NCBI GenBank assembly: GCA_009746045.1
Contig: RPFO01000348.1
Coordinates: 1,672,801-1,736,800, forward strand
From: Mesostigma viride
Lineage: Eukaryota > Streptophyta > Mesostigmatophyceae > Mesostigmatales > Mesostigmataceae
Direction of reading: 5' to 3'
DNA length: 64,000 nt
This document shows positions 3,060 through 51,006 of this stretch, piece by piece. A model generated the notes under the pieces. That model saw only the letters and a program-made list of their open reading frames with translations. It ran no database searches and had not been told where the DNA came from. The first letter of the stretch is position 1. Every line of letters begins with the position of its first letter. The translations under genes were made by a program, and so were the position numbers.

Positions 3060-5042
3060 ATGCACGCAAATGGCTGACGGCGGTATGGCTGACGGCGGAG
3101 TTCAGATCTTTTGCGTCTGAGCCCCAAATTCGGTCAGACCACTTGCATTCGATGCGCCTTTCTAAGACGCACTTGCCAGTATAAACGGTTACGGCTGCCA
3201 CGCAGTATAGACAAAGTTACGCACGTGACCAGCTATGACGACTACCAAAGCAAAACGAGGGCTGGAAAAGGAGCTGGCACAGCTTCCCAGCGCCCAGCCC
3301 AACCCTCTCGCCCTCGCCATTGTTCCGCCGCCAGGCTTACCCGCCAACCAGCCGTCTGGGCCTGCCAACCCACCGCCAGCAGCCCCATCTCCCAGCGCCT
3401 CGCCTGAGCCCAAGAAACCCTGCCACGCTCGCAAATGGCGCCAGTTCCTCCCCGGCGACCGAGGATTCTCCCTCACCGGGTGGCAAGAATTGTCGCCGCA
3501 GGAATGCATTGAGGTTCTCCAGTTCCTCGAACAGGAGCGGAAGCTCTTCGTGAAGGGGGCTATTGACTACGATGGAGACATGTCCTGGCTCTATGCTATG
3601 AACGAAGCACTGAACAACGCCTGGCTATCTTGACCAGCCATTTCCAGCTCCGCCTCATCGACATCACCCGCACGCTCCGCACCCCAGCCCCCGCACAGCC
3701 GGCAGCCCCCTCGGCTTCCTCCCTCTGCAAGGATGACATCCGCGCAGTGCTGGAGGAGCACGTGACCTGGCCGCTGGCCGAGCAGCTGACATCGCTGAAC
3801 ACCACGCTCAACACGGTCGAGGCCCGGGTCTCCAACGTGGAAACCAAGGTCGTCCACAAGCTCCAGCCCCAGTTCACGACGCTGCACACCGCGGCACAAG
3901 CTTCGGAAACGCATGCGGCACTTGTCTCTCGCCTTAACCAGGTGGAGGGCAAGTGTGGCGTGCTCCTGAAGAAGCTTGAGGCCATCACCGCCCACACCGA
4001 GGCCCTGGCCACACAGGTCCCCAAGATAGCGGAGCAGACGGCCACCATTGCATCCCAGCCACCCCGGCAGGATGCTGGCGACCTCCCGCCGCTCTCCTAC
4101 GCGGACCTGCTGCGGTCAGCGACCGCCTCCACCACCGACGCCATCGCCACAAAGCTCCAGGAGCTGGAGGACCACCGCCAGGCCCAGCAACGGGAGGTCA
4201 CCGATCGCGCTCGCCGCGAGTGCCGAGTGGTGCTACGTCGCTTCCCCCAGAAGCCAGGTGAGACGTCAACCTCTCTTGCTGACGAGCTCAAGAACCAGCT
4301 TCTTACCCTCATGGGCCTGGTAGGTGAGGTAGAACTGCGTGGGTGCCACCGCCTTCCCCACTCACGGGATGTCCAAGGCGGCTCCCCCACCAGTCCTACT
4401 CACCTTCTCCTCCCCTGAGGATAAGCAGCGGTTCCTCTCTCGTCGCAAGCGGTTGCACGACCTCACCTGGACGCTGGATGACGACCTCACCCCCGCTCAG
4501 CAACAGCAGCGACGCGACCTGTGGCCGGAATACCTCCGCCATAAGCAGGACCCCCAGAAGCCCAAGGTGTACTGGAGGGGCGGGGACCTGATGATCAACC
4601 ACAAGATGTGGACGCCCCCAGCGGGCTAGAATAGCAATAGCCCTAGCTTGTAACCATTGGCGTCACTGCCGCTAAGGCAGCCATGCCTAGAATGTTGCCT
4701 AGCTGTGCCAACACACCTAGTCACGTGCCGCCAACGCACGGTACACAACCAGCCATAGCCTAGTCCTAGTACAGCCATGCTACGCCCTGGCTATGTTCAG
4801 ATTACTTGCCCACGCTCCTTGCTATGATATGCTCACATGGGTCTTATTGCACCCACAGTTTGCCGGATCGTTAGCCTGTCCTTTTAGCTAGCCGCGCCCG
4901 ATTGCAGCTGTGGCATGCCTTTGGCATGAAGGAGACTGGGGGTCTCTGCCCTTTCTCCTGTAGTGCACACACAGGGATTAAAAGCACTTCGGTGCTCCGT
5001 GACTCCCCAACGGGAGCACGAGTTTAATTAATTAATTAATTA
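3060..5042 (+). mobile_element. LINE relative carrying only ORF1 (HAL1-like), plus copy
   Basis: The 5' end has two partial copies of ATGGCTGACGGCGG, followed by a leader that is shared, reverse-complemented, with about 52800-52960 and 8860-8930. One ORF1-type gene follows (3235-4629). Roughly 400 bp of 3' sequence ends in a (TTAA)n run at about 5023-5042. No reverse transcriptase or endonuclease frame follows before the tail, so the copy must be moved by another LINE's machinery or is an internal deletion. A second copy with the same architecture lies on the minus strand at about 51007-52960, so the ORF1-only form is a family trait rather than a local accident. I did not identify target-site duplications. 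Confidence 0.65.
3235..4629 (+). pseudogene. L1-ORF1-like RNA-binding protein, two frameshifts
   Basis: The frame runs 3235-3633, then continues in other frames at about 3630-4418 and 4339-4629, so two indels break it. The amino part is Pro/Ala-rich with a TAQPNPLALA-like low-complexity stretch and a PSASPEPKK segment also present in the 51.4-52.8 kb copy. A long region rich in heptad-like Leu/Val/Ala (around VEARVSNVETKV) suggests a coiled coil. It is followed by RRECRVVLRRFPQK, which aligns in spirit with the RRM start of L1 ORF1p. The end has LTFSSPEDKQRFLSRRKRLH and LDDDLTPAQQQQRRDLWPEY, resembling the ORF1p C-terminal domain. Such proteins coat LINE RNA as trimers. Both copies here are broken. 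Confidence 0.6.
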
Positions 5043-10190: not shown

Positions 10191-10622
10191 CATTCTGACA
10201 AGCGCTGCCAGCCCTATTTGATGGATATTCCTAGATTGCCACCTGTGACGAAGCTAAGGGAGGCTTTAGCTAGTATTTAACCACACTAACACCCCTTTAT
10301 ACATCTAAGCCTCATGAAAACTGGCCAAACCACATACTACCATTCTCTGCACATATGGTACCTCCTATGTTCAAGGTTTGACGCCATTCTGACAAGAACT
10401 GCCTAAGTTACAACCATTCCAAGACGGCCACCCATGTAGACGCTACAAGGAAATTAGAGTAACCATTAAGCCACACTAGCACCTCCTTCTTCATCAAAGA
10501 CATCTGCAAACTGACCAAAGCACACATAATCAACTCTTGCACGCTGACGGCAACGCATGCTCAATGTGGGGGGTCATTGCGACAAGAACTGCTCAAGTTG
10601 ATGGGTTTCCTATATTAAGGAC
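10191..10622. repeat. Satellite-like tandem array, ~192-bp period
   Basis: CATTCTGACAAG-type starts occur at 10191, 10384 and 10575 (the last with one change), giving periods of 193 and 191 bp. Each is followed by related sequence (GACAAGAACTGC, CCACACTA-CACC). The array is interrupted at 10622 by the LTR retrotransposon. Confidence 0.6.
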
Positions 10623-11001
10623 AGTTAGTCTAAGTCTCCCGCCTGTAGCCTAAGTGGACACGTGCCAGCACCGCCGGCGCCCAATTGGGTGCTGGGACGG
10701 TGCTGGACTAGATCAGTCGTGGCATGGACACGTGGCTAGACTCAGTATGTGATGAGCCGGTACCTCAGTACCGGGACTGTAGTTGTCATGTTAGGACTGA
10801 CTAGATCAGGTTGTAACTGATAGGTTAGTCCGTCCAGGATCAGTAAGTTAGTTTAACTTACGCAAAGTCTGGCCAGCCATCGTTGACGGCTGGCCAGCAG
10901 TATATGTTCCATTCTATCCTAATGCCAAGGTGTCTCGTCGTTCACGCACACACACGCCATTTGGCAGTGCCCAAGCATTCCAAGCTTTGTGTTGCATAAC
11001 T
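10623..11001 (+). repeat. Left LTR (379 bp)
   Basis: Starts AGTTAGTCTAAG and ends GTTGCATAACT. It contains hairpin-prone blocks: CCGGTACCTCAGTACCGG, and GGCCAGCC-N-GGCTGGCC followed by TATATG, which could be the promoter TATA. It differs from the right LTR at one noticed base in the TATATGTTCC/TATATGTGCC segment. A conventional tRNA primer site directly after it was not recognised. Confidence 0.9.
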
Positions 11002-11106
11002 TGCATTAAAAACTCCAAAAACAATACACACAACAGGACGACGAGCGTTCATTTCGCGAACAAAACAACCCATTCCATTTTTCTACCTCCAGTTTTTTTT
11101 TGAAAA

Positions 11107-13900
11107 ATGTCTAACCCAAATGCGAACAAGGGTAAGGCTCCAATGCGCCCAAGGAGCCGGTCCAGCACTCCGACGTCTTCATCGTCGGGGACGTCCGACT
11201 CGGAGCTTGCCGCCCAGGCAGAGATTGAGCGGGCGGCGAGGAGCTTCAATCAGTCTATATGGAGGCTGACCCGACGACGTCGGAAACGTCTTCATCGGGC
11301 CACTTGTCCGATGGTTCGTACAGCAGCGTGGTGCTGCGAGTGCCCCTGTATCCGCAGGGGAGGGGATCCACGCCTGTGGTCAACAGGCCGAGGGGTCCTC
11401 CTTACGCCCCGACAGCTGAAGCGGCGGGGGCTGGACCTTCGGCACCTCCTGCAGAGGAGGAGTCCATGGAGCTGTATGGGCTTCAGCCTGGTTCCTCAGC
11501 CGAGGAGCAGGACGACGCACGCTCGCGACAGGTGGCTGCAGACGAAGGCTTCGCCAGGGCGATGGCTGAGCGCGAGGAGAGGGAGTTTCGGCGCGCGGAC
11601 ACGCACGCTCGTGCTCGCGCCCAGCAGAGGGCGGATGCTGAGAACGTGCGCCGGGCGTTGCTTCGCAGCAGTGAGGTGGCTTCTGGCGAGGAGCAGTTTG
11701 AGGTGATGCGTCGGGGGGACCTTGCATGTTTTAAAAGTTTGCGTCGGTCTCGTGAGCCGAAGGTACACCTAGGTGTGCATCAGGAGTCGGAGTTCTCTTT
11801 GACAGGTCCGTCGGGGGCATCTGCTGAGGACGAGATCCTCATGACCCCGGCAATGACGGCGCGGGAGCGTGAAGCGCAGAAGCGCATGGCGACGTTCACC
11901 GCCGACAAGCAGCGTCGGCAGGCGCGGAGGGCCGCGGCAGAGGCCAAGAAGGAGCGCGAGCAGGCGGAGCGGGTGAGGCAAATCGCGCTGGCGGAGCGCA
12001 TCAAGCTCAAAATGTCGATCACCCAGGTGCGCCGGGACCGGATGGTCCGCGAACTCAGGGTATGGAAAAAGGCGCAGGCGATGAAGCTGCAGCATATGGC
12101 TGAGATGGAGGCGCCTGGCAGGCCGGAGGCGCAGGAGCGTTACAGACGCTCGCTGGCACGGTGGGAAGCCAACGTGGGCAGGATGGAGGAGCGTATCCTG
12201 AAGCAGCGACGACGCATGATCAAGCATGCACGTAAGACAGCGGTGAGGGGACCGCTTGGTGAAGCGGTGAGAGCCGAGTTTGGCCTTGGGCCGGATGAGG
12301 ATGTTTCTGCAAGCCAAATGTTTTATTATTTGTCGCAGCCCAAGAAGACCATCACCAACCGTGATGGCACTGCCGCACGCACGCGTGTTTACAGGCAGCC
12401 TGGTGAAGCCGGACCGTCTAACCTGTCTAACAGGGAGGACATCATCGAGCAGCTTCAGCTGGCGCAGGCCATGCTGGAAGGCGACCACCCGCTGTCTCCC
12501 GGCGAGCAGGAGAGGTTGGCCGACACTGTCACCAGGCTGGTGGCATCGCTGAAGCCGGTCAAGCGCAGGGCGCAGGCAGAGGCATGCGCACCGCAGCCAA
12601 AGCGGAGGAGGGACGAGGGGGCGGATGACGGGGAGAGGGGGGGCAACCAGGGCAGGGCAGGACACGGCACGCAGGAGTCTGCACCAACACGGCACGAGGG
12701 CGGGGAGCGGCAGCAGCAGCAGCAGCGACAGCAGCAGCAGCAGCAGCAGCAACCGCCAACTGCAGGAACGACAACAACCTCCAACATGGCCTTGACTAGG
12801 CCCAGGTTTGATCCAAAAAAGAAAGAGGACAAGCTAGTGTTTCCGGGTTTGCCAGAGGGCCACACCCAGGACGAAGCTAGGGAGTGGTTGTTTAAGTTGT
12901 CACATGCATATGCTAGCGACAATGTCCGTGATTGGTTTGCCTCTTTACGTGCGTCCACACCCATCCATCAATCTGCCAAGCCTATCCAGCAGTTGGTCAC
13001 AATTGTACCAAAAGCGTGCCAGCAGCGGGGTAGACGTGGCAGAAAATGTGTTGTGGGCGCAGTTCATGGTTGATCTTAGGGCACTTGTTACCACGGGGGA
13101 GCACTTAGAAGTGCTTAAGGGCTTCCAGTGGATAGAGGCCTATAAGGTCAATAAGCGTGACTATGTGAGTGACAACAAAAAGTATGTCATGTACATAGAG
13201 GGGGATGAGGAGCTGAAGAAGCTCAATGCCAAGTACCTAGTACACCTATGGCTACAAAAGGCAGAACTGGACCCTACCACCCTGTCAGTAATCCTGGCAT
13301 GCAGGTCTGAAGGATAAGTGGGAGGACTTCAGGAAGGCAATGGCCTACGTGCAGCAATGCCTAGAGCCGTTTGCTGCTGCAGCCAAGGATGTAAAGGTGA
13401 AGCAGGTAAAGGGGGAGGAAGCCTCAGGTACGGGGCTCTCCAAGAAGCAAATGCAGTCGCTGGTGGCCCAGGTAAAGGCGGTAATGGGGGGGGATAAAAA
13501 CAAAAACAACAAAAGTGGGGGAGGTGGAAACAAGGGGGGGGGGAAGAACCATAACAATAAAAACAGAAAACAAAGTGGGGGAGCTAGCAAGCCAGGGGGT
13601 GCTAAGCCAGCAGGGGGGGACAAGAGGTTACCTCATCAGACCCCACCAAACATTGCACTAGGTGCCTTTGTAAGGGGCACCTAAAAGATGATTGCTGGAA
13701 GGGCAAACCCGACTATGGTTCTGACGTTGATGTGTGTCCTGGATGCTGGAAAACACGTCACCCCATTGCAGCAGGAGCGCGCTGCACGGCTCCCAGGCAC
13801 AACAAGCCCACGCCAGGGCGCTACAACCGCGCGGGGGCGGCAGACCAGGGAGACTCCTGTAAGCTACCCTCACCATTTTTCACAAATGGTTTCCTGTTAC
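11107..13900 (+). pseudogene. Gag of the LTR retrotransposon, frameshifted
   Basis: A start at 11107 (MSNPNANKGKAPMR) reads into a second frame at about 11259, which stays open to 13073. The next part lies in another frame to 13317, then 13340-13680, then a last frame from about 13656. The middle contains long Glu/Arg/Ala-rich helices (around residues 180-330 of the 11259 frame), a polyGln run encoded near 12712-12750, and a typical Gag-like block LVFPGLPEGHTQDEAREWL. The end is Lys/Gly/Asn-rich and carries the zinc knuckle CTRCLCKGHLKDDC (CX2CX4HX4C) at about 13659-13700. Gag packages the element RNA. At least three frame changes, some at homopolymers, break it; some could be assembly errors. 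Confidence 0.75.
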
Positions 13901-14182
13901 CTTCTGTCTGCCAAGTGTTGCCTGAGTGTGATGATGTGGATTGGGAAGTGGCATATGACATGACACTGTCACACATGATGCGTGACCCCACCATAGCTTC
14001 CCTTAGTGCAGCAGCAGAAAAGGTAATCACGTATGGTGCTCTAGCAGAGCAACTGCACAAGGTTATGGGCCATGAGGCTGTGGCTGAAAGGCTAGCCAAT
14101 AAAATACAAGGCCATGACCTGGAACAGATGTGCAGGCACGTACGTACGTAAGCACTGTGAGCAATGTCAGCTATATGCTCCT
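13862..14182 (+). pseudogene. Integrase amino part with H2C2 zinc finger
   Basis: The frame opening after the zinc knuckle contains LHKVMGHEAVAERL, then GHDLEQMCRHV, and after a short frame change KHCEQCQLYAP. The pattern H-x4-H ... C-x2-C with YV-x-C-x2-CQ resembles the H2C2 finger of Ty3/Gypsy integrases. It binds zinc at the amino end of integrase. The reading is cut at 14183-14184 (AA) by a 480-bp insertion and resumes in the same frame at 14665, giving a continuous integrase if the insert and one AA are removed. Confidence 0.65.
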
Positions 14183-14184
14183 AA

Positions 14185-14664
14185 CACTACAATACGGTTC
14201 ATAGGAGACGCGAAATGAGTGAGAATGTTACCCGAAGTGTACCGAGGATTCGCACCGTTGATTCAACAATTGTTGGTTTGTTTTGCGCCATTTGGCGAGC
14301 ATCGACTGGAGCCTGAACCTAGCGGGGGGAATCATGCGCGGGAATCTTGCGGGAGAATCTTGCGGGGAAAAATTCGAACGTGACTTTAGCGAAGTCCTAC
14401 TCCCATTTTGATTGGTTACATGGTACTACATTTTCGTCACTGAAAATTTTCTCTAGTTGCGTTTGTGGATAGTGCGTTCCGCTGAAATTTTCGTGTTCAG
14501 TGACCAGATCACAATTTGATCCGGGCGCAAAATGATTGGCTGTACGGTACGAACCAAAAACGAAATTTTAGTATCTAAGTTCCGCAGCGCTTGCTGAATT
14601 TGCCCCGGAAGCCCGGGGGCACTTTCCCCGCTGAAAAAGGTGTCCGCGAAAGCGTATTGTAGTG
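14185..14664. mobile_element. 480-bp CACTA-type miniature element
   Basis: Terminal inverted repeats are CACTACAATACG at 14185-14196 and its exact complement CGTATTGTAGTG at 14653-14664. A 2-bp AA duplication flanks it (14183-14184 and 14665-14666). Removing the element and one AA restores the integrase reading frame. No coding capacity is present, so it must be mobilised in trans. The CACTA start is characteristic of the EnSpm/CACTA superfamily, although that group more often makes 3-bp duplications. Confidence 0.8.
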
Positions 14665-15996
14665 AAGCCCAGAAAATGGCATGTGGCCACACCACCACTG
14701 GCTAGAGGCAAACTGGTTGGGGATGTTATACACGTGGTGAAGGACACGGTATACTACCTAGTCATAAAGGATGCCTGGTCAAGGTTTGTGGTAGTGGAGC
14801 CTCTGCCTGGGATGGATAAAGAGCAGCTGCACAGAGCTTTGCAGATAGCCTTGGCACGTTTTCACCCCATTGAAAAAGTAATGCTGGATCAGCAGTTCCT
14901 CTGCATCCAGGACAGGAATGACCTGCCCAAGATAGAAGTGTCTGGGGCTCAAGATCATGAACGTCAGGGGTTGGTAGAACGTACCATGAGAGCCATCAGG
15001 GATGTGATAAGAAAAATGCCATCCAGGTTGGCTGACTCTGGTAGCTATGCTGACAGGGCATCTTGGGCAGCAGGGGTGACTACCCAGCTAAACGCCAAAC
15101 CAATAATGTCCTCACCTTTTGGGGAAATCACCCCAACTGGCCTTCAGTCAGGCAGCTATGCTTCAGAGGTACACACTCACTACAACACACAAAGGCAGCA
15201 CTTAGCCAAGTTGCTGGCAAAGAAAGACAAAAATAATGCCAGGCCTGTGTTTGAAGTGGGGGACCATGTGTTGTTTTTCAGAGAGGGTGACAGAGGAAGA
15301 GCACACTCTGCCAGATGGCACGGTCCAGCTGTAGTCACCAAAATTCATGAAGAAGGGACTGCAGTCACTATACAACATGACAGAGAGCGTGTGGTCAGCA
15401 AGCATAGACTCAAGCTTTATTACCCGCCACTGGCAGACGTGTCAGGGGTAGAATTCTTGGACATGGATTCAGAGCAGGAGTCTGGTGGATTAATCTCACC
15501 CAATGAATTGGCTAAGGACGTCATTGATGCAAGCACTAGTACCACAGTAGAAGCTCCTGTGTTCCTCAGTAGTGCAGCCCCACTACAACCCAATAGTCCA
15601 CCTGGGCAGGAGGACGGTGCACAGGGTGAGCAGCAGGTAGCACCTCCCTCTCACCTGGAGGAGTCACAAGAAAAAGCAGATCCTGTCGTTCCCAGGAAGT
15701 CATTTGCTGAGATTCTTAAGGCCTTGCACAAGGCACACAACACTAAAGCAGTTGTGGCAACAGGTACAGCACAGGTCAATGCTGTAGGGGATGCAGGTCA
15801 AGATCCTAGTATTTTGGCTGTAGACACCCAAGCACAGGTGAGTATCATCAGTGCAGAAGCTGTATCTGGTCTGAAAATGAAGGCCTCACCATGGGCTAGA
15901 GTGTCAGATCGATTTTTCAGGCAAAACCAAAATGCAGGTCAAAGGTCAGGTGAGCATTCAAATCTTGGGTATGCCCACTCCATTTCAGGTGGTTGA
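14665..15996 (+). pseudogene. Integrase catalytic core and GPY/F-like tail
   Basis: The frame starts KPRKWHVATPPLARGKLVGD and continues IHVVKDTVYYLVIKDAWSRF, the usual integrase core fold opening. A candidate second Asp is in KVMLDQQF, and a candidate Glu in ERQGLVERTMR, like the DG-x-ER-N block of other integrases. WAAGVTTQLN and SPFGEITPTG follow. From about 15250, VGDHVLFFR and RWHGPAVVTKI resemble the GPY/F module that follows Ty3/Gypsy integrases. Integrase inserts cDNA ends into the host genome. The tail (about 15480-15770) is Pro/Gln/Glu-rich linker. Residue assignments are by eye. Confidence 0.7.
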
Positions 15997-16538
15997 GGGT
16001 TACTCAGGGAATGCCCTGTTAGGGGAACCTTTTGTATCTTACCCTGGTGTTGTCATCTCAGCTGGGAGGTTGAGTGTGGCAGGGGTAGGACAGGTGCCTC
16101 TAGATCATTTTAAAATCCCTTTGAGCCAGATTAGCACTGGGTTGGATGCTGCCATCAATGCAGTTAAGCCCAAGTACCTCCCAGGTCAAGAACCGTGTGT
16201 GGAGGAACTCATACACTCTCAAAAGCTACACCCTTCAGCGTTTGGGCTTGGTAGATGGGATGTTGCATCCATGTCTCCCCTGTCCTATGATGATATTGTA
16301 CGGGACTGCCAGACGCAGATTGGGTTTCTTAAGTGGCTGGAGGCTTTTACCAAAGCCAGGGAGGAGTGGGTTGTTCCAGATGCACGTAGTCCCACACACA
16401 CACCACCGGTGACTCCTCTTGATGCTATGCCAGCTGGAGCCAAGAAGCTAAGGTTAAAGTTTGTGTGCAAGCATAAACCTCAGGCTGATGGGGGACCACC
16501 CATTTTCCATGCTAGGCCATGTGTCACTGAGTTCAGGG
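15800..16538 (+). pseudogene. Possible displaced retropepsin-like segment and RT amino part
   Basis: Downstream of integrase the frame shows ILAVDTQAQVSIISAEAV, which resembles the retropepsin start (hydrophobic-D-T/S-G-A) with Gln replacing Gly. After a frame change come QVSIQILGMPTPFQVV and NALLGEPFV, which could be the later ILG block. From about 16420 KKLRLKFVCKHKPQADGG and FHARPCVTEFR resemble the Copia RT lead-in (KARLVAKG-F-Q). If the protease call is right, the order is Gag-IN-PR-RT, unlike canonical Copia (Gag-PR-IN-RT). The missing Gly makes activity doubtful. The frame is interrupted at 16538 by the 6.8-kb insertion. Confidence 0.4.
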
Positions 16539-16554
16539 CACCGGGAAGGGGTCT

Positions 16555-16790
16555 GTGACATTTTGTGATATTTTTTTATCACAAAATGTCACTTTTGTGA
16601 CATTTTGTGATAAAAAAATGATAAAACGTGACAAAATGTGACAAAATGTGATAAAACTGTGACAAATTGTGATCGAGACATGTCATGATTGTGACAAAAC
16701 GTGACAAACGTGATAAAACCAGCATATTTTGTGATAACGTCACTATCACAAAATGTCAAAGTGTCACAAAATGTCACAAACCCACAGAAA
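16555..16790. repeat. Left subterminal array of TGTGACAAAATGTGA motifs
   Basis: Many copies of TGTGACAAA, TGTGATAAA and their complements are packed here, including a near-perfect hairpin around 16557-16622. The right end carries the complementary array. Likely transposase-binding sites in the subterminal region. Confidence 0.7.
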
Positions 16791-19700
16791 AACAAAATGT
16801 GACAAGATGATAAATCACAACCACTCAGGGGAAGTGATATATCACAAAGCACGCATAATGCACATCCGCAGCAAGGAAGTGCGTGCCGCAGCAGAGACGG
16901 AGAAGGAAAAGGCCAAGGTGGGACACGACACGGTGGCAATGCCAGGAGAGACAACACGTGCAGCGGTACGGGGCAAGCGTACTGAAAGGAACTGACAAAA
17001 CAAGCTGGAAACACTCTCAGGTGCATGATAAAATGCACCACAATGTCATGAGCCATGGGAGACATGGTTTATTGCAAAAATATCGACTGGGATGTTAAGA
17101 AAAACACCAATATTGAACATTCAGGGCAATGATCATCACGGTCATCAAGTGTCAACCTCCGACCCATCGCTGGCCAAGCATCCATCGTGCTGATCAAAGG
17201 TAAAATCGTCAATATCTACACTGAATCACAACACTGCATCATGCATCCATTGCTCTGAGCTCACAACACTAGTATGATAAAATGGCAACGGGGAGTGAAC
17301 ATATTCAGATGGCATGCAACAACCCGATGAAATGGCACAACTGATCAAATACGAACACAAACTGTATTGATACACACACAAGGAACGGTGCACTCAAGCA
17401 TGGCTGTGGGTGGTGTGCAAAATGGACACCCACAATCATCTCACAAATGCAATATAAAATCTGTTGACCGAGAAGTACAACGGGGCTCAACAGTCCTCGT
17501 CATCAAAGTCATCATCCTCATCATCACCGAAACCATCACGAGGGCTGTCCCAGCCACCATTGCTGAAGTAACTGGATGACTCTCTAGAAACAATCACAGG
17601 ACACTGTCGAGTGCTACGGCAATGTGACCATTGAAGGCTCAGAGCCTACAAAATCTGCATCCGCATGTGGCCTCTCGCCGTGTTGGACTGACGGATGTGC
17701 CCGGCCCGACTGTGTTAGGTATATTGCCTGCATGCAAGACAAAAATACATCATCCGGCAAAGCACGCATCGGTACACACAAAAATTTGTTAGTGAGATGA
17801 ACGCTACGCGCTGGACGTGCCAACAACTTTGCATGACTTCAGTTCACTTGTATGTAAGGATGCGGGGGAGATCGCAGCAGTTGCGTGGCTATCTATGAGT
17901 ACCGGCCTAATTTTAGGACAAAGAAAGGTGAGATACTGGGCCAAGAGAGAGACAGGGGTGCTCGAGAAAAAAAATTGGCCATAGATGTTCACCTAAATTG
18001 TATCTACATGCCTCACAAGTTGTAGGGAACTGCACACCCAGAAATCCTGGAGTCGCAAAGGTTCCCTAACATGCCAAGAGGCCTCACAATCTACTTCATT
18101 GCAATCTCTGTATGGTTAATACGGCAATAAGAAAGAAACGCCTGAATAGTGCCAAGAAAATGCAAGGCCAATCAACCAACAATATGCCCCGTTACAGGTA
18201 GGATGAACTCTAACGAGGCTGAAGGCTCTACGTCTGCAGTTGACACTAGCAGGAGTCGTTCAGGGTGGGGAGCGGGGGGGAGGGAATGAAAAAAAGCTGT
18301 GATCTGAGCAAAAAGGATAAATATGCAAAGATGCTACCCATGCAAGGAAGCGAGATATAGTCCAGCAATGCATGAATGTCAACCAAGGCTACTGGATTGC
18401 AAAGAAGATTCTACCGACAGCGAAGGAATTGGTACAAATAATGCAAACTATTTGTAGCTCAGAGCATCACCAGCGGGCTACAAAAAAATCATGCACTGAA
18501 GCTGGAAGAACAAGGCCAATGGTGGCTGACACGCACAGCACGTTGATAATTTGAGGAATGAGCACTACATAAAGAATGATCACCGTTGCTCACCATCAAG
18601 AATTCGCCGCGCTGGACAGGTGACCAAGAGCTTGTCGCTGCCACATGCGATGGGGCCGCGTGCAAGTCCAACGGTATCAGGCATCACAAGTACACGCGCA
18701 AAATCGACACCACAATGGCAACACAGATGCACACATACGAATGTATAACGACCGAAAGCATAAACAGAGAATCAGTAGGTTAAGACAAGGAAAGTGGCGC
18801 AAGAGCAGCCCATGTCATGCAACTCTCAATCTGAACAAGGTTATGCCCTTCATGAAAACTAAATCGGATGTCGTTTGCATAGTCTATTGACCTTGTACGA
18901 ATGAGATAGTGAAACTGCTGCAGCATTCATGGCAAGCACGGCTAACTTGGCATGAAACCGAGCGGCCCATAGCAGCCTTGGCCCTAGGGCGATACGTGAG
19001 AATGCCACGTGCGTACGGCATGCATGTTAAAGTCGATGCAAACTTATTAGAATTTCAGGCGAGGAATTCCTTGCTCACCTCACTGGTAAAGAGTGGGCAG
19101 CTTCTGGATGTCCGAATGTGCTGTGCCTACCACTGAGCGAACAGATCGATTAAAGCTTTATTCCAGACCATGCCTATGTTTCTCCCCCGATGGCTGCTTG
19201 TAGCCTTGTCCGAGCTCGCTCCTGAATTCATTTAAGACGACGCCCTAATGGCTACATAAATCACGACGGTCATCAGTGAGCCTATGCTCCTATTCCAACC
19301 ACCACGTGCGTTCATACAGAAGCGACATTGCTGGAAATCAAAAGGCACATAATCCCGCCTTGGCTGCGAGCCGATCGCAGCTCCCTTCCACCTTTCCCAC
19401 CTGTGCAGCGTGGATAGATGTTCAAGTCAAGTAATTTTTTTTTTCGCGTCGTCTTAACTTCAACTTCAACGGTAACACCCGCGCAACCACTGGAATGAGG
19501 GCTCGCAATTCGCTAAGTCTCATCAACGTCGCAAAGTCTGGTAACTTGGGGTCATCGCTCTTCCTGTCATCACTCATCAGTGCCAAATACTATCGTCATC
19601 ACTGTCGTCATTAGAGGCCCTTTACTATCGTCAGTCACTCGCTTTGTGACGATAACTAACGTACGGTATATTGCATCAGTCGTACTTCCCGCCCCCCCCC

Positions 19701-21507
19701 TGCCCACGTCCCCTTCCGATTTCGCCGCTACTACATATCTCTCCGAGTAGAAGTAGTTTGACATACATGAGGAATAACTGACTGACGAAACCAGTAAAAA
19801 GACGACTGACATGACTCTCTAGTATCGCTTGGTTTTGACCGCTTGCTGCTGGCCTGGCATCGTAACTGTTAGCCGTACCGTTCAGACTACAGTCGACGGC
19901 GGCCCCTAGCTTGGGAGTCTGGAATGAATGGACAATAAATCAATAATCTTTCGCAACAAGCGCAAGTCTGGAATCAACCCGTCAGGATCCTTGCGCAAAA
20001 TTCAAATATTGCGCCGAAACCGATGGCGAACGACTAGGTGCATGGACTGAGGCGCACGCAAATCCATTTGGCTACTGTAAGGCTAGGCAGTATATCCCAT
20101 GGAAAGCGGGAAAATTTTTTAAATGGCGGCTATGGCGGATTTACGATTTTCACCCGCCTAATCTTCGAGGACTGAGAAAAATTTTAGCCTATCGAAACCT
20201 CCTGCGCGAGACCTTCCTAATGAGCTCTCATTGCGCCACCCATGCGCAGCTTTGACAGACTTATCGTCGCCCTGCCAACTGAGCCGACGCCTCGACTCCT
20301 TCTGAGGCCCAGCACTGTAAACAGGCCATCTTTCCTCAACCGCTGGCGCAATGTTTCCCTCTTTTACCTTGCCTGCCCATGCCCGCGATTCGAGCTTTCT
20401 TGGGTCAATTCTGTGCAGTTACCAGAATTCTAGCCCCACCGCCAATGCAGCCGCCCCTTTGGCTGTTGAGTGATGTCCAACTGGCACGATGGAAAGGCCT
20501 CCATCACATTGGCGCCCTCTCCAGTGGCCCACATGTACCGACGAGACCTGCATCTCGAGCTCCTCGGCCCACACGCTGCAGCTGTCACCACGCGAGACGC
20601 CCTGAGACTCTCGGCATCATTTTCCCATGCAATATCACGCCCTCGATTCGCAGCAAGGTCTTCACCTACCGGCTACCACCATACCGGCCATGAGCCCTTG
20701 CTGCACCACTGCACCACACGAAGTGTGCGGCCCTGAATTAAGTTAAGTACACGGCAGGACTAGGAACCCCCCGAAATTACATCAGGATCTCCAATGGCCT
20801 TGGCGTCACATCTTGCGAACGTTGTCACTGTTGGCAGTTGCTGGTTGCTGTTGGTTGTTGCATGGTGAGGGTTTCAGATGTTCTCGGAACAGCTGGTCCC
20901 ATGTTGCTATGCATGCAGTTACTCTTGCCATTATGTGTGTCCATGTGCCTCCAACCATCCCGCCACAATGCCAGCACCCTCCACCCTGCTAATCCCCACT
21001 CGCCCCACTCCCCTGCCTGTTCCATACCCACCCCACCCACAAAGATACATTACGGACATCCACATGCCGCTATCCATCCCCCCCTGACTACGGACCACTC
21101 TCGCCCCCACCCTGAGGTCCCCCACAACACCGTAACACCGCCCTCCTCCCCAAACCATACACTGCCCTCCTCCCCAAACCATACGCTGACCCACCCGACC
21201 ATCCACCTTGAGTCCCCCTAGCCAACCTATGTGACTACCACCCTTCCGTATTACCTCCACCACATTCCACACCAACATCGCAAACCATCCACTAAACCAA
21301 CCACCCGCCCCACAACGAGGTTCCCCTACACCACTGCACCCCGCCCAGTGACCCCACCCCCCGCTGCCCTAATATACGATGACTCCACCCCACCATCCAC
21401 ATGAACCATAACCAACCCCGCCCACCCCGGCCTCCGGGGCAACCAACCCCTTGTCCACTCAACCATAACTGACCCTGCTGCATAGACCATCGCCAAGCCC
21501 GCCTACG
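16791..21507. other. Interior of the 6.8-kb transposon, no recognised gene
   Basis: Short frames only (at most about 130 codons) with no transposase signature. 20930-21510 is unusually C-rich on the plus strand, with many CCCACCC and TCCCC words. I cannot assign a source for this cargo-like interior. Confidence 0.5.
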
Positions 21508-21700
21508 TACCATTAATTAATTAATTAATTAGGAACATAACTCCGTTGGGAGTATATGTAGCACATAGCCCTGAGAAGGGGCATATGGCCTTTAATACAC
21601 TCTTGGCTACTTCTTGCAGGTGGGGGAATGTAAACTGCCACCTGCTCTGGGTGCACGAAGTGCACCTGCCCACCACTGTATTCAGGCACCTACGTACCAT
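21508..21700 (-). mobile_element. LINE 3'-end fragment, 5'-truncated
   Basis: A (TTAA)n tract at about 21512-21530 is followed by GAACATAACTCCGTTGGGAG, TATATGTAGCACATAGCCCT and GGGGCATATGGCC. The same text occurs at 51007-51075. The orientation is minus, with the TTAA tract as the tail. Strong 5' truncation is typical of LINE insertion. The fragment lies inside the 6.8-kb transposon and is therefore a third nesting level. Confidence 0.7.
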
Positions 21701-22859
21701 AGGCAAGCCACCACGGCAACCCAAGCATCCCCACCCCTCACACGAACCTGTGACCTACGCACGAGCTACCCACATTTACAACTGCGTTCCACAACTACTA
21801 AATCATCAACCCCTACCAATGTCCCCCTTGACACCCGCCAAAGGAGGGGGAACCCCCCCCCCCTTCCCCCACCCACCCACCCACCCACCCCACTACACTA
21901 CATCGGACCGGTATTGTAATCTAGCGCCGCACCGGCTGTGACTGACCTGACTGACCCCAGGTTGCGCGGTTTCTCAGGTGACTGTGGGAAACTGGGCTTA
22001 TTCATGAGAGGGGGTGTCTAAACTGGGGTGGTTAATGTCAGAGTGGGCTGAGTGGGGGCTGTGGGAAACTGGGATAGTGTATGAGTGGGGGGGTCTAAAC
22101 TGGGTTGTTCATGAGTGGGCTGAGCGGGGGCTGTCAGAAACTGGGATTATTTATGAGTGGGCAGTGTGTGAAACTGGGATTTTTTTTTTTTTTTTAATGA
22201 CTGATTGCAATTTTACAACCCCCTCATGAGGGGGTTGTAAACACTGGGATTATGAGTTTGCGGGCGGGGGAGGCCGCCTTGCTGTTCTTGAAACCCATTC
22301 AAGGATGTTCTAGGCAACACATTGATTTTGATGTGCATTTCTATTGATCGAGGCTGTGAAAGGCTATGACAAATCTTGAGTGTTCAAACTTGCCTTTTTT
22401 TTTCTGCTCACAGGGAGACAAGGTGCCGGCCTCCTCGTCGTCGTCCACTTAACATCGTCATCTAGGCGCCATGACTGTGCAGGTTTGTTTTTGTTTTCTT
22501 GATCTATATCGAGCGCTTTCTTGTTCATGAATTGGTTTTCTAGGGTGCGGTGGCAGATGAGACAACTGACACCAACCATCCGTTAATGTTTCTTGCGCAT
22601 GTGCGTTTTTTAATGCATTCCAGGAACATTCTGAGATTTCTGTCACGCAACGACAAGCGCCAAGCCGGCGTTTGCAAATTGTCACTGATCGATAATCACT
22701 GTTGAAGAATGAAGAATCAAGAATGAAGAATGAAGATCTGTTACATTTATCTTTATATTTGTAATAAAGAAATCGCGAGCTGTGCTTTTCATCCGTTTTG
22801 CTTTGGAATGTGTTCTGATATATCTGTGTGATATGTCATGATCGCCCGTGGTTTTATGT

Positions 22860-23330
22860 CACTGTTTTCTCCCTAGATTTATCAGTGACATTGTCACGGC
22901 TTTGTCACCCTTTTTTTCCTGATATATCAGTGACAATGTCACGGATTTCGTCACCCTTTTTTTCCTGATATATCAGTGATAATGTCACGGATTTGTCACC
23001 CTTTTTTCGTGATAATGTCACGGATTTGTCACCCTTTTTTTTGTGATAATGTCACGGATTTGTCACCCTTTTTTCGTGATATATCAGTGATAATGTCACG
23101 GATTTTGTCAGTGCGTTTTATCAAGTCGTGACATTGATATTTTGTGATAATTTCCTTGTTTTTGTCACAAAGATAATCACAGAATATGCTGGTTTTATCA
23201 CATGATTTGTCACGAAATGTCACAGAATATCACACTTTTGTCACAAAAAATCACAAAATGTCACATTTTGTCACATCCACATCACAAAATGTCACGTGAT
23301 ATGTCACAAAATATCACAAAATGTCACACC
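22860..23330. repeat. Right subterminal tandem array
   Basis: At least five units share GTCACGGATTTGTCACCC, TTTTTTTC and TGATATATCAGTGA. They are followed by dense TGTCACAAA motifs to the terminal repeat. The layout mirrors the left end and supports a single transposon. Confidence 0.7.
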
Positions 23331-23343
23331 CCCCTTCCCGGTG

Positions 23344-24663
23344 GGGCTCTACAGAGCTGACAGAGGCTGAGCTTTATACTCCTGGTATTCAGCAAACGTC
23401 TCTCAAGGTGTTGCTTTCCTTGTTTTTGCATCAGCTTAATACAGGGAAGGATTATGTGTGTAAAGCCACAGATATCAAAAGAGCCTTTCTAAAGGGGGAC
23501 CCTGCCATAGCACAGCAGGTCTGGAGAGGTCAGGTATACGTGGTGAATACTCCTAAGGTGTGGCACAGGGATATTGTTCAACCCTTGTTGAGGCCAAACC
23601 TGGGGGTTGAAGGGTTGCAGTCAGCTCCAAAAATTTTTAGGCTGTCTGCACAGGAGGTATTCATGAAGCTAGGGGCCACCTATGATGACATTGACCCTTG
23701 CTTGTTTGTCATCCCACACCCTGATGGAATGATGATGTTTGTCTGGCATGGGGATGATCAGTTAATCTCAGGTCCTAGAGCTGCAGTGGATGCTTTCATA
23801 GCTCAGGTGTCTGCCAGTTTTGAGATTGGCAAGCAGCTAGAGCTGGGCAAGGAGCCAGTCAAGTTCTGTGGCATGATGCTTGAGTTGCTGCAGCAGCAGG
23901 GCAGCTGGGTTTGTTCCATGCAGGCCTCTGCTGAATACATTAAGTCTTGTCTGGATGTCCTGCCTGTTCACATCACCCCTGACATGTGCCCTACCATTAG
24001 AGGCAAGCTTGGTTGGCTATGTGCTACATGTGCACCCCACCTGGCTTTTGTGAGCAGGGTAGATGATGAGGTACTACAGGAGGTAGGAGCACGGGCAATC
24101 AAGCAGTTGTTGCATGATGGTCCACCTTTGATGCTTCACTCACTGGACCTGTTTACTCCCATTCACATCACGTGCATGATGGATAGTTCAATGGAGTCCA
24201 GGGTAGTTACCAAGGTTCAAGCCAGAGAGGCTGGATTGTTTTTCCTGCATAACCAAGGTGGGAAGAAGTCACTAGTCTCCTGGTTCAGTAGATTGCACAA
24301 GAGGAAAGCTGTGAGTAGCAATGTAGCTGAATGCAGGGCTGTGGTATCTTCTGTCTTGCATGCAAGGTATCTCAATCACTTGCTGGTCTGGCTTCAACAC
24401 CAGGCTGGTAGCTCTGCAGGAGTGAAAGCACATTTGCTGACTCACTCTCAATCTATCATCTCCTTCCTTGCCAATCCTTTGGCTGTACACTCGGACCTGG
24501 ATTGGATTGTGCTAAAACAGGAATGTGCAAGTACCTGGAGTCTAAAGCCCACGTCAGGGACAAAGACAATGCTGCAGATGCACTGACCAAGGTGCCACAA
24601 GCAGCAGGACCACAATACCAGGTCTTGTATGGGTTGATGAACCCTGGTTACAGTCTGAAGTGA
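23344..24663 (+). pseudogene. Copia-type reverse transcriptase and RNase H
   Basis: The frame opens through RWGSTELTEAELYTPG and contains KATDIKRAFLKGD (Copia -DVK-AFL-G), SAPKIFRLSAQEVFMKLG, DIDPCLFV (the DPCLF hallmark) and MFVWHGDDQLI in place of YVDDLLI. Then come FEIGKQLELGKE and RNase H blocks ITCMMDSS and SWFSRLHKRKAVSSNVAECR. A frameshift near 24515 moves the end to KYLESKAHVRDKDNAADALT, like Copia's ADILTK, and a TGA at 24661-24663. RT and RNase H copy the element RNA. The GDD-type active site with His-Gly before it is unusual for Copia. The 5' side is cut by the 6.8-kb insert. Confidence 0.8.
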
Positions 24664-25038
24664 CTGGCACATTGTACATGTTAGCCCATGACCCCCTGCC
24701 TAATACTGCAGCTGCAAGGCTGCAGTGGCAGCTGGGTAGTTTTCTGACAGTGAGAAGCACTGGTCTAGAAAGTTGGGACATGATGAATGTGTTATTTATT
24801 GAATAAAATTTTGTGAGACACTTGTTTGGATGACCATGACATGCTGGGGCCTGGAGCACCCATCTCACTCAGTTAAGAAACCATGCTTGAGACATGGGGC
24901 CTTTTTAATGCATCTCTTGTACATGTGTGAGGTGACCTTTGGGTCCTAGTAGGTTATCTGACAGTTTTTTAAGGCATTGGGAATGGCTGCGTCCATTTAA
25001 TGGCTATGTGAGTTTCTGTTGAAACCCAAAGAAAACTT

Positions 25039-25046
25039 AAAGTGGG
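25039..25046 (+). promoter_or_regulatory. Polypurine tract
   Basis: AAAGTGGG directly precedes the right LTR. It is the expected plus-strand primer position for reverse transcription and supports the strand assignment. Confidence 0.7.
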
Positions 25047-25425
25047 AGTTAGTCTAAGTCTCCCGCCTGTAGCCTAAGTGGACACGTGCCAGCACCGCCG
25101 GCGCCCAATTGGGTGCTGGGACGGTGCTGGACTAGATCAGTCGTGGCATGGACACGTGGCTAGACTCAGTATGTGATGAGCCGGTACCTCAGTACCGGGA
25201 CTGTAGTTGTCATGTTAGGACTGACTAGATCAGGTTGTAACTGATAGGTTAGTCCGTCCAGGATCAGTAAGTTAGTTTAACTTACGCAAAGTCTGGCCAG
25301 CCATCGTTGACGGCTGGCCAGCAGTATATGTGCCATTCTATCCTAATGCCAAGGTGTCTCGTCGTTCACGCACACACACGCCATTTGGCAGTGCCCAAGC
25401 ATTCCAAGCTTTGTGTTGCATAACT
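25047..25425 (+). repeat. Right LTR (379 bp)
   Basis: Same length and text as the left LTR, apart from one base noticed in TATATGTGCC. Followed at 25426-25430 by the AGGAC duplication. Confidence 0.9.
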
Positions 25426-25430
25426 AGGAC

Positions 25431-25974: not shown

Positions 25975-26312
25975 TCGAGTCATGCTTTGCCCATGCAGGG
26001 AGTTACTCCCTGCTGAGAGGCCATGTGTACCCTAGCCATAGCCTAGCCACATACCTTCCACCCCATATGTCATGCAGGCCTTCTAGGCCCTCTCCTCAAG
26101 CCCCCCCTGGGTGCCTGTGCTTGTTTAGGAGGCATGAACCATCATGGAGGTGCAGGTGCACCTAGTGCACCCAGAGCAGGTGATAGTCGAGTACATCCTA
26201 CACCTGCAGGTTGTCGCCCTGATTGTATTACAAACCCATAGATGCCCCTTTCTCAGGGCTATGGGTTACATATGCTCCCCACGGAGCTATGATTTTAATT
26301 AATTAATTAATC
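25975..26312 (+). mobile_element. LINE 3'-end fragment (ORF1-only family)
   Basis: GCAGGGAGTTACTCCCTGCT, the GGTGCACCTAGTGCACCC segment and GGGCTATGGGTTACATATGC followed by TCCCCACGGAGC lead to a (TTAA)n tail at about 26295-26312. The same blocks, reverse-complemented, form the 3' region of the copy at 51007-51430. The fragment lacks ORF1 and is 5'-truncated. Confidence 0.7.
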
Positions 26313-34000: not shown

Positions 34001-37000
34001 GTAGGAGAGGGTGGGCAATAGACCCCTTCTGAACCACAGACGTCGGCACTTCGCGCTAACCGGGTTCGGATTGCAATAAGGCGTAGCCTGGGGCCAGTTC
34101 TGTCGCGCGGCGCCCCTTCTGGCGCCCCTACGTAGAAACCGACTTACGGACGGGTGGGTACGAGGAAAAGTGGTTAGATTTCGCGCTGCGCGGCAGAATC
34201 ACATCTTGGCGCCGCGTACGTAGCGCCGACAACCCACGAGAGACCCGCACCAAACAGGCCCGCCGTATTTTTGAACTTTGCCAACTTGAAGGCTATTGAC
34301 CCGTCTTATGAACCACGCTGTCGAGGCGCGACGCCGGTTTAGTGCGGTGCATAAGACGGGTCCGGTCTCGGAGGCGGTGGTTCAGAAGTGGTTTAATCAA
34401 CCACCACCTCTTGAGAACCAAAACACAGTGTGGGCAGACCAAGCCATTATGGACCATTGTTAGCTTCCGCGCGTCATTTGGCGCAACCGCCAACTACACA
34501 TGTGTATAGTAAAATTCTGGCAACACCACTAGGTGCCTAAACCAGCGCCTGTCGTAACACGGACAATTGCGCGTCTGTAGTAGTCGCTGGTGGCCCTAAG
34601 TTATCAAACCTTTCATACGACCTGCCCTTGGGACACCAAGCTGGCGTGAAACGGGTTTGTTTCAACCCCATACCGGCTGGCTGCTCCTCCGCAGCTAGGT
34701 GCTTACAATGAGTCTGGCATGAGCTATGCCCAACGTGGCGTGATTGATAATCTCAGTACACAAGGCGCGATCCTGGCCTTCAACAATAATTGCCATGACT
34801 TGAAGAAGTTTTGCGAAACAAAGTTGAAAATTATAAGCTGCTGCTTACACAGTAGTAAACGCTTACATCTGAGCTCGCACCCAAGTTGGTGATTCCATCG
34901 CCTTTAGCGCTTGTATACAGAAATTAATGCTTACATCTCCGGCGCCGGCTTGCCATGCACCACCTCATCGCCTGCAACCACGACTGCAAACTGCTCTTTC
35001 CAGCCTGCAACGTGGCGGATGGCAGCACGCAAAATAATCATGGCGGGGGCCAGATCAGGGGACACCAAGGGGGATCGGGGAAACAGGGGGCACAGGGGGC
35101 AGTGGGGGAAGAGGGGGAAGAGGGGGAATAAGGTGACACGATCATCCAACCAAAGCAAGGCAAGAGTTTTACTAGCTGCGAGAGATCCCAGGGAGGCACC
35201 ATCCACCCCGTTATAAACCTGGTAGGCACGCCCTGTCCCCATTCGATGAACAATAGACATTTGACCCTGTCGTAAACCTGGTAGCCACGCCCTGTCCTGT
35301 CCCCATGGGATAAACAAGCCACAAAAACACGTGGCATTATCCCATGAGCAGAGATCCTAGAAGTATATTTCCTAGGTTTTTTAAAGCACATGAACATTTT
35401 TATCCATTGCATTATAGCACGCACGTTATGGGCCTAATATACCTGCACACCCAACATCATGGCCGAGCGTACAGTCGTCTTGGATAGTCCAGATGACGCG
35501 GAGTTGCTAGCTGCGACTCCAGAGCTGGGTGAGTGAGTCGCGCCACTTGCCTTCGCGGGTGAAGTATCCGCGTAGAAAAGTGCCTCATCGGGTACTCCGT
35601 GGCATGCCTTCAGTGCATGTTCATGCACCTACATACTTACTTACTTATACCTGCACACCAGACAGCCTGCAGTGCCTCTATGGCAGAGACCAATGCTAGC
35701 GCACACAGCAAATTTACCCCCCCTTTGCTCCTTCGCTCGACTCTAGGCCAGCAATCGCTTGCTTTTGGCCCTGCCCTGCACACACGCACTTAGTGATGTT
35801 AGGAGTCATGCCGATCGCTACCAGACCGCGACGAAAGGTATGAATCCTTGTCCCTGTAGGTACACTGCGATGGTTCACAGCTACACACTGCATGACATAT
35901 TGTTGCACTTCTAATTTTGCAAAGTATTCTGATTTGGCACGCCGCAAAGGTGAAAACCATTTGCGTTCAGTGCCGGTCCGCGGAAAACGCGGAAAACGCG
36001 ATCTGCAAATGAATCCGACCGGAATCGAACTGGGGACCTCTCGCACCAACTTTCGCTGACTATGATTTTGCAAAGTATTGGATGAAAGTGAGCAAAAATT
36101 GGCTCGCCAAGGAAATAGTACAACTAGCCGGCAAGGAACTAGGGCGTTTCCCTAACAGGTAGCTAGCACAGTTAATGTCGAAGAATGAGCGATCAATAAG
36201 TAATGAGCAAATGAGCACAGCATCCTGGAGTTCTGTCACCAGTAAGTAATAAACACAATCCCTCACTGGTCACTGATAACTAACCAATAAGCAACGGCCA
36301 CACGCAGCGCACGGTGCTACCACAAACGCACCATCCTGCGGCGCCAGCTTCCTCTCCAGCAGCGCCCGCGGTGTGCTGGTGGCTAGTCCCGTCGCAACCC
36401 CACACGCGCGCAGGTGGCTCAGCAGCCGCACCGCACCGGGCAGTGGGCGCACCGCGTGCAGCCTGCAGGGTTTGTGGGTGGTGGATGGGTGCGTGGGTGG
36501 GTCGGCGGGCGGGCGGGCGGGCGGGCGGGCGGGCGGGCGGGCGGGCGGGCGGGCGGGCGGGCGGGCGGGCGGGCGGGCGGGCGGGCGGGCGGGCGGGCGG
36601 GCGGGCGGGCGGGCGGGCGGGCGGGCGGCGGGCGGGCGGGCGGGCGGGCGGGCGGGCGGGCGGGCGGGCGGGCGGGCGGGCGGGCGGGCAGGCGGGCGGG
36701 TGGGTGGATGGGTGGGTGGGGGGTGGGGGGTGGGTGGACGGGTGGTGGTGGGTGGTGGGCGGTGGGGGGGTGGGTGGTGGGTGGTGGGTGGGTGGGTGGT
36801 GGGTGGTGGGTGGTGGGTGGTGGGTGGTGGGTGGTGGGTGGTGGGTGGTGGGTGGTGGGTGGTGGGTGGTGGGTGGTGGGTGGTGGGTGGTGGGTGGTGG
36901 GTGGTGGGTGGTGGGTGGTGGGTGGTGGGTGGTGGGTGGTGGGTGGTGGGTGGTGGGTGGGTGGGTGGTGGGTGGTGGGTGGTGGGTGGTGGGTGGTGGG

Positions 37001-50923: not shown

Positions 50924-51006
50924 AGTATACATTCATTAGTTGTCTCATGCATTCACAGTGTTGTCTTATTCATCAGTGTTCAATTAGTTTGAATTGAATT
51001 GAATTG

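What the first reader, a model, noticed from the sequence alone, without database searches (positions are those of the whole stretch)
13862..24663. LTR retrotransposon that looks chimeric: Gypsy-like integrase with Copia-like RT
The integrase part has an H2C2 finger of the YV-x-CE-x-CQ style and a GPY/F-like tail (VGDHVLFFR ... RWHGPAVVTKI), both associated with Ty3/Gypsy. The RT has Copia hallmarks (DIKRAFLKGD, DIDPCLFV, SSNVAECR) and the integrase lies before RT, as in Copia. A mixed element of this kind would be a distinct lineage.
Basis: partly seen in the sequence, partly recalled or inferred. Interest (0 to 1): 0.75.

Follow-up and report, generated by a model that had tools for sequence, protein, structure and literature searches.

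The report
Algal retrotransposon with mixed enzyme parts
This is a broken copy of a virus-like jumping element, probably from a green alga, whose DNA-copying enzyme looks like one known family while the tail of its DNA-inserting enzyme looks like another; by its title a 2008 paper reported a similar mix in a red alga, and the order of the enzyme parts here may be new.

Summary
The motifs are real. They lie in the pol part of a full-length but dead LTR retrotransposon at 10623-25425: 379-nt LTRs, 1 mismatch, AGGAC target duplication, unusual AGTTA...TAACT ends. RT matches only the Copia-type model RVT_2 (E 1.2e-4; relative P0004 6.9e-6), below Pfam's cut-off. Integrase lies before RT, with an rve core (E 3.2e-6, below cut-off) and a GPY/F-like tail (GPA variant), a module described as absent from Ty1/Copia. 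So the mix is supported at motif level only: no tree could be made, and one IN relative was found (candidates capped). Recombination and retention of an ancestral tail both stay open. If confirmed, the order is Gag-IN-PR-RT-RH, which I did not meet in the paper listings and passages seen. Dead: frame changes, a lost RNase H Asp, two nested CACTA-like insertions (480 and 6,805 bp). Host: Mesostigma viride guessed. New variant of a known kind.

The parts
10618..10622 (.). target site duplication AGGAC (left)
10623..11001 (+). 5' LTR, 379 nt, begins AGTTA and ends TAACT
   Evidence: one mismatch to the 3' LTR (10908 against 25332)
11107..13850 (+). gag region, broken into several frames; limits approximate (first ATG at 11107 read by eye)
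   Evidence: codon-frame scan from 12700 on; no Pfam hit
13654..13695 (+). CCHC zinc knuckle CTRC...H...C (nucleocapsid)
   Evidence: sequence
13735..13785 (+). second Cys/His cluster CPGC...GARC, same frame
   Evidence: sequence
14056..14170 (+). integrase N-terminal HHCC: HKVMGH 14056-14073 and CEQCQ 14156-14170, with a frame change between them
14185..14664 (.). insertion 1: 480-bp CACTA-like MITE, 12-bp perfect TIR CACTACAATACG, AA on both sides
14665..15240 (+). integrase catalytic core; likely D at 14722, D at 14887, E at 14977 (D-x54-D-x29-E)
   Evidence: PF00665 rve E 1.6e-5 / 3.2e-6, below cut-off
15250..15423 (+). GPY/F-like C-terminal module FEVGDHV...WHGPAVV...SKHRLKLYY (GPx variant)
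   Evidence: no Pfam hit
15811..16060 (+). retropepsin-like region AVDTQAQVSII (D at 15823) ... ALLGEPF (G at 16022), with a frame change between; inferred
   Evidence: PF12382 Peptidase_A2_2 E 0.029 for the first half, none for the second; about 66 residues apart
16352..16538 (+). reverse transcriptase, N-terminal part
   Evidence: tblastn of P0004, 62% identity
16539..23343 (.). insertion 2: 6,805-bp CACTA-like element, 13-bp perfect TIR CACCGGGAAGGGG (34 of 36 over the first 36), GGG on both sides, subterminal repeats
   Evidence: P0004 is uninterrupted across it
23345..24016 (+). reverse transcriptase, main part; DIKRAF 23471, HGDDQ 23747 in the place of YVDD
   Evidence: PF07727 RVT_2, below cut-off; P0004 63%
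24017..24663 (+). connection and RNase H, Copia-type by eye; NVAECR 24320, LLTHSQ 24434 (Asp in P0002 and P0003), ADALTK 24574; frame change near 24526
   Evidence: no Pfam RNase H hit for P0002 or P0003
25039..25046 (+). polypurine-tract-like AAAGTGGG just before the 3' LTR
   Evidence: sequence
25047..25425 (+). 3' LTR, 379 nt
25426..25430 (.). target site duplication AGGAC (right)

Best explanation
A recently inserted but now dead copy of an LTR retrotransposon lineage, probably of a green alga (Mesostigma viride guessed). It has a Copia-type RT and RNase H, an integrase placed before them whose C-terminal tail is a GPY/F-type module, and probably an aspartic protease between IN and RT. Working relatives would act like other LTR retrotransposons: an LTR-driven RNA is packaged by Gag, the polyprotein is cut by the protease, RT-RNase H makes the cDNA, and IN joins it to the host with a 5-bp staggered cut. 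The GPY/F-type tail would help integrase multimers form, as reported for Gypsy integrases. Shown: LTRs, target duplication, RT and IN core by sub-threshold profile matches, the tail motif, the two nested insertions, the breaks in this copy. Inferred: the protease, the RNase H class (by eye), all activities, the host, and whether the tail came from a Gypsy-type integrase.
For: LTRs 379 nt with 1 mismatch and AGGAC on both sides. RVT_2 E 1.2e-4 in the window and 6.9e-6 in P0004, no RVT_1. rve E 3.2e-6. Tail motif once in six frames of the window, 0 of 20000 shuffles, expression post hoc, unchanged in P0001. [quoted passage not shown] Copia IN has GKGY instead (PMC3601003 passage). P0001-P0004 argue for a family rather than a one-off assembly join: P0004 spans insertion 2, P0001 joins the IN tail to the DTQAQ motif.
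Against: All of these profile hits lie below the Pfam gathering cut-offs. The tail hits no Pfam family, nor do P0002 and P0003 hit an RNase H family. No PDB relative of IN, RT or RH (the hits at E 0.7-1.7 are unrelated proteins). AlphaFold models are of no use (pLDDT 34.9 and 37.0). The protease hit is marginal (E 0.029), its triad reads DTQ, not DTG, its second half hits no Pfam family, and neither half has a PDB relative (0 hits; 4 unrelated hits, E 1.1-1.4). D-x29-E is shorter than the DD35E given for Copia in PMC5445492. No tree could be made.
Confidence: 0.6

Rival explanations
1. A deep-branching Copia lineage that kept an ancestral GPY/F-type tail; no recombination with Gypsy took place. 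(The anatomy of the best explanation is the same; this rival concerns the origin of the tail.)
For: Bao et al. 2010 propose that the ancestral integrase had GPY/F and that Copia and BEL may have lost it (PMC2836005 passage). Few relatives of IN and RT were found (1, 3 and 1 proteins; candidates limited by shared words and length), which fits a deep branch.
Against: No other Copia element with such a tail was met in the passages read, apart from the Porphyra title; not tested by phylogeny.
Confidence: 0.35
2. An ordinary Copia element; the GPY/F resemblance is chance or convergence in an SH3-like tail.
For: The tail is 'GPA', hits no Pfam model, and a loose motif expression matches 49 of 20000 shuffles. 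Copia tails are also SH3-like (recalled).
Against: GD-V, W-GP and RLK-Y occur in the right order and spacing; the strict, post hoc expression matches 0 of 20000 shuffles.
Confidence: 0.2
3. The mixture is made by nesting or misassembly of two different elements.
For: Two insertions and several frame changes are present.
Against: Both insertions look like CACTA-type DNA transposons, not LTR elements. Overlapping open frames run from the IN core to the RT N-terminus with one frame change (the codon scan was trained on these same stretches, so it adds nothing here). P0001 carries the IN tail to the DTQAQ motif in one protein, and P0004 spans insertion 2. No single protein found joins IN to RT.
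Confidence: 0.05
4. The protease lies in the usual place before IN (ORF 13685-13963, which reads VLDAGKHVTP), and the DTQ motif after IN is chance.
For: VLDAGKHVTP looks like a Copia protease start (recalled; found). Codon scores of the two frames are close or both negative at 13660-13899. PF12382 E 0.029 is marginal.
Against: The other frame (ORF 13606-14151) runs open from the zinc knuckle to HKVMGH and leaves only 90 residues. From 13840 on, outside the training stretches, codon scores favour it. After IN, DTQ and LLG lie about 66 residues apart, as in retropepsins (spacing recalled).
Confidence: 0.25

Closest known systems
Copia-like element encoding gypsy-like integrase, red alga Porphyra yezoensis (Peddigari et al. 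2008, J Mol Evol 66:72; seen as a reference entry in PMC5445492 only)
   Same: By its title, the same mix of Copia-type element and Gypsy-like integrase, also in an alga
   Different: The paper is not held, so domain order, LTR ends and protease position could not be compared; PMC5445492 cites it for GalEa elements in Porphyra
Ty1/Copia (Pseudoviridae)
   Same: RVT_2-type RT, Copia-like RNase H motifs by eye, IN before RT, 5-bp target duplication
   Different: GPY/F-like tail instead of GKGY, HGDD instead of YVDD, protease-like motif after IN, LTR ends AG...CT instead of TG...CA
Ty3/Gypsy (Metaviridae)
   Same: GPY/F-like IN tail; the protease-like motif best fits a retrotransposon peptidase model (PF12382, E 0.029)
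   Different: RT is not RVT_1-type and IN is not after RNase H
rGmr1/Gmr1 Gypsy elements
   Same: IN before RT (PMC3601003 passage)
   Different: They belong to Metaviridae/Gypsy; here the RT is Copia-type
CoDi-A/CoDi-I Copia elements of diatoms
   Same: Algal Copia elements with an addition at the IN C-terminus also known from Gypsy (PMC2774666, PMC5348765 passages)
   Different: Their addition is a chromodomain; no chromodomain hit here (Pfam)

Membership tests
Ty1/Copia | RVT_2-type reverse transcriptase | tested here: met
   Only RT model hit, E 1.2e-4 and 6.9e-6, but below the gathering score 31.6 (22.2 and 26.3 bits)
Ty1/Copia | order PR-IN-RT-RH | tested here: inconclusive
   IN-RT-RH met; PR seems to lie after IN
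Ty1/Copia | IN tail without GPY/F (GKGY type) | tested here: not met
   GPY/F-like module 15250-15423 by motif only; absence in Copia from PMC2774666 and PMC3601003 passages; a GKGY motif was not searched for separately
Ty1/Copia | RT placed inside Copia in a tree | not tested
   no reference set could be obtained and few relatives
Ty3/Gypsy | RVT_1-type reverse transcriptase | tested here: not met
   no hit
Ty3/Gypsy | IN after RNase H (except Gmr1) | tested here: not met
   IN at about 14056-15423, RNase H at about 24176-24663
Ty3/Gypsy | GPY/F module in IN | tested here: met
   motif level only, GPA variant; no Pfam support
LTR retrotransposon | LTR pair, target duplication, gag-pol inside | tested here: met
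LTR retrotransposon | tRNA primer-binding site after the 5' LTR | tested here: inconclusive
   TGCATTAAAAACTCC follows the LTR; its first 20 nt share no complementary 8-mer with the LTR; no tRNA in the window to compare
CACTA/EnSpm (insertions) | TIR starting CAC and 2-3-bp duplication | tested here: met
   no transposase was looked for by profile inside the inserts, so 'CACTA-like' only

The most novel reading that the evidence does not exclude
A lineage of LTR retrotransposons with the pol order IN-PR-RT-RH, in which a Gypsy-type integrase sits between Gag and the protease in front of a Copia-type RT with an HGDD active-site box, and which uses LTR ends AGTTA...TAACT instead of TG...CA: a further arrangement of the same four enzymes.
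Probability: 0.35. Interest if true: 0.72.

Novelty: new variant of a known kind. Interest (0 to 1): 0.5.

Why it matters
The position of IN and the GPY/F tail are two traits used to separate Copia from Gypsy and retroviruses. An element that mixes them, in an early-branching streptophyte alga if the host guess is right, bears on whether IN was swapped between LTR lineages or whether Copia lost an ancestral tail. A protease after IN would add an arrangement that surveys may have thrown away: Neumann et al. 2019 removed every element with unexpected domain order as likely wrongly predicted (PMC6317226 passage).

Tried and rejected
Tried without result: relatives in viral contigs, genome contigs and phages: none. 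Protein search: 1 hit for the IN ORF at E 1e-3 (where only the 7994 candidates sharing most words were scored), the same 1 at E 10 for IN core plus tail (1787 candidates), 3 for RT-RH (3967 candidates). Only proteins of 0.55-1.75 times the query length are candidates, so full-length polyproteins were not searched. NCBIfam (4 proteins): none. PHROGs (4 proteins): three weak hits to families of unknown function (E 0.015-0.38). Rfam and tRNA scans of the window: none. PDB by sequence: nothing related. AlphaFold of IN and RT, two sequences each: pLDDT 34.9 and 37.0, so no fold search was run; the strands predicted after a long helix in IN fit an SH3-like tail but carry no weight. Reference Copia and Gypsy elements from viral contigs by motif: 1 match, a phage-like contig by its ORFs, and 0. 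Blastn of the element against the window showed no second copy beyond its own LTRs and some repeats; the gag query of the tblastn in that call was in a wrong frame and is not used, and one search printed a gag line in that same wrong frame. Alignment A3 misplaced its third row and was not used. The genome search was unreachable at all ten tries, so copies in the window's own genome were not seen.

Rejected: misassembly or nesting of two LTR elements (see rivals); dinoflagellate host as first choice (no exact 12-base spliced-leader relic; introns of the PP2C gene read as GT-AG by eye), though near-identical proteins carry a Prorocentrum lima label.
Full report
What is there. The reported stretch is the pol part of a full-length LTR retrotransposon at 10623-25425. 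The two LTRs (10623-11001, 25047-25425) are 379 nt long and differ at one position. The element is flanked by AGGAC on both sides and its ends are AGTTA...TAACT, not the TG...CA that most LTR retrotransposons have (Kojima 2025, PMC12440569, abstract passage). A purine-rich AAAGTGGG lies just before the 3' LTR. The near-identical LTRs point to a recent insertion.

The copy is dead. Frames change in gag, in the IN finger, between the IN tail and RT and in RNase H near 24526, where this copy also has His in place of the Asp of P0002 and P0003. The codon scan covered 12700-16560 and 23300-24760 only and was trained on 14677-15895, 15938-16537 and 23354-24527, so it is independent evidence only outside those stretches. 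Two DNA transposons have jumped in: a 480-bp element with TIR CACTACAATACG (14185-14664) and a 6,805-bp element with TIR CACCGGGAAGGGG, GGG on both sides and subterminal repeats (16539-23343). P0004, a relative 63% identical over the main RT part, runs through the second site without a break; none of the four relatives spans the first.

RT-RNase H. The only RT model that matches is RVT_2 (PF07727), the Copia type: 22.2 bits in the window and 26.3 bits in P0004, both below the cut-off of 31.6. RVT_1 does not appear. No RNase H family matches P0002 or P0003. By eye the anatomy is Copia throughout (recalled comparison): DIKRAFLKGD, DIDPCLFV, SSNVAECR and ADALTK. The active-site box reads HGDD in the window and in P0004 instead of YVDD; another change of this box, QTDD, is known in fungal GalEa Copia elements (PMC5445492 passage).

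Integrase. The core matches rve (PF00665) at E 3.2e-6, 27.8 bits against a cut-off of 32.6. The likely catalytic residues are D-x54-D-x29-E, shorter than the DD35E given for Copia (PMC5445492 passage). The tail FEVGDHV...WHGPAVV...SKHRLKLYY has the GPY/F layout, in the form Llorens et al. 2009 call GPx (PMC2774666 passages). [quoted passage not shown] Copia has GKGY instead (PMC3601003 passage). It is not Gypsy's alone: Bel/Pao and Ginger1 also have it. My strict motif expression finds it once in six frames of the window and in 0 of 20000 shuffles of the ORF; the loose one once and in 49 of 20000. The expressions are recalled and were written after seeing the sequence. No Pfam family matches the tail.

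Protease. Little room for a protease is left between the zinc knuckles and IN: 90 residues lie between the second Cys/His cluster and the first His of the finger. After the IN tail comes ILAVDTQAQVSII; its best Pfam match is PF12382, retrotransposon peptidase, at E 0.029 (14.9 bits, cut-off 27), and about 66 residues on, after a frame change, comes ALLGEPF, a stretch that itself matches no Pfam family. Both features and the spacing fit a retropepsin (recalled), but DTQ replaces DTG. P0001 also reads DTQAQ, at its very end. Against this, a VLDAGKHVTP string lies in another frame at 13733, before IN, and codon scores do not decide firmly between the two frames at 13660-13840. I hold Gag-IN-PR-RT-RH as likely but not shown.

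Relatives and host. Four proteins were found, all from EukProt: P0001 (99% to IN), P0002 (99-100% to RNase H) and P0004 (62-63% to RT) bear the label Prorocentrum lima; P0003 (85-87%) bears a JGI label, Mesvir1, which I read as Mesostigma viride. A PP2C gene in the window (PF00481 E 4.3e-9) has introns that read as GT-AG by eye. [quoted passage not shown] PMC6947507 passage), is my guess for the host; the near-identity to P. lima data would then be contamination or, less likely, transfer. This is not settled.

What is known. Nine paper searches (open-licence library only) and passages of eleven papers led to a likely precedent: Peddigari et al. [quoted passage not shown] I saw only the reference entry; the paper is not held, and the citing paper counts the Porphyra elements as GalEa Copia elements. 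Gmr1-type elements of Metaviridae have IN before RT. None of the listings or passages that I read described IN-PR-RT-RH, but the library is partial and I read passages, not whole papers.

Judgement. The reading 'chimera' is plausible, but rival readings (retained ancestral tail; convergence) are not excluded, because no IN or RT tree could be made. The most interesting open points are the protease position and the LTR ends.

Noticed in passing
10623-11001 and 25047-25425: LTR ends are AGTTA...TAACT instead of TG...CA, which may go with a divergent integrase.
   Followed up: partly
14185-14664 and 16539-23343: Two CACTA-like DNA transposons nested in a young LTR element; the longest stop-to-stop ORF listed in the large one is 159 aa, and it has subterminal repeats of the TGTGACAAAA kind.
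   Followed up: partly
21516-21669, 26152-26311, 50992-51144: A repeat of about 150 bp, about 80% identical, occurs three times in the window, once inside the large insertion.
   Followed up: no
23345-24663: EukProt proteins labelled Prorocentrum lima (a dinoflagellate) are up to 100% identical to parts of this element: contamination or transfer.
   Followed up: partly
44354-47783: A PP2C phosphatase gene with several introns that read as GT-AG by eye.
   Followed up: partly
3567-4418 (+), 51434-52246 (-): Two ORFs that look by eye like LINE ORF1 proteins; only Pfam hits below cut-off.
   Followed up: no
36270-37340, 44454-45104, 60062-61495: Long repetitive stretches open in several frames with strong GC skew; the tandem-repeat finder was not run there.
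   Followed up: no
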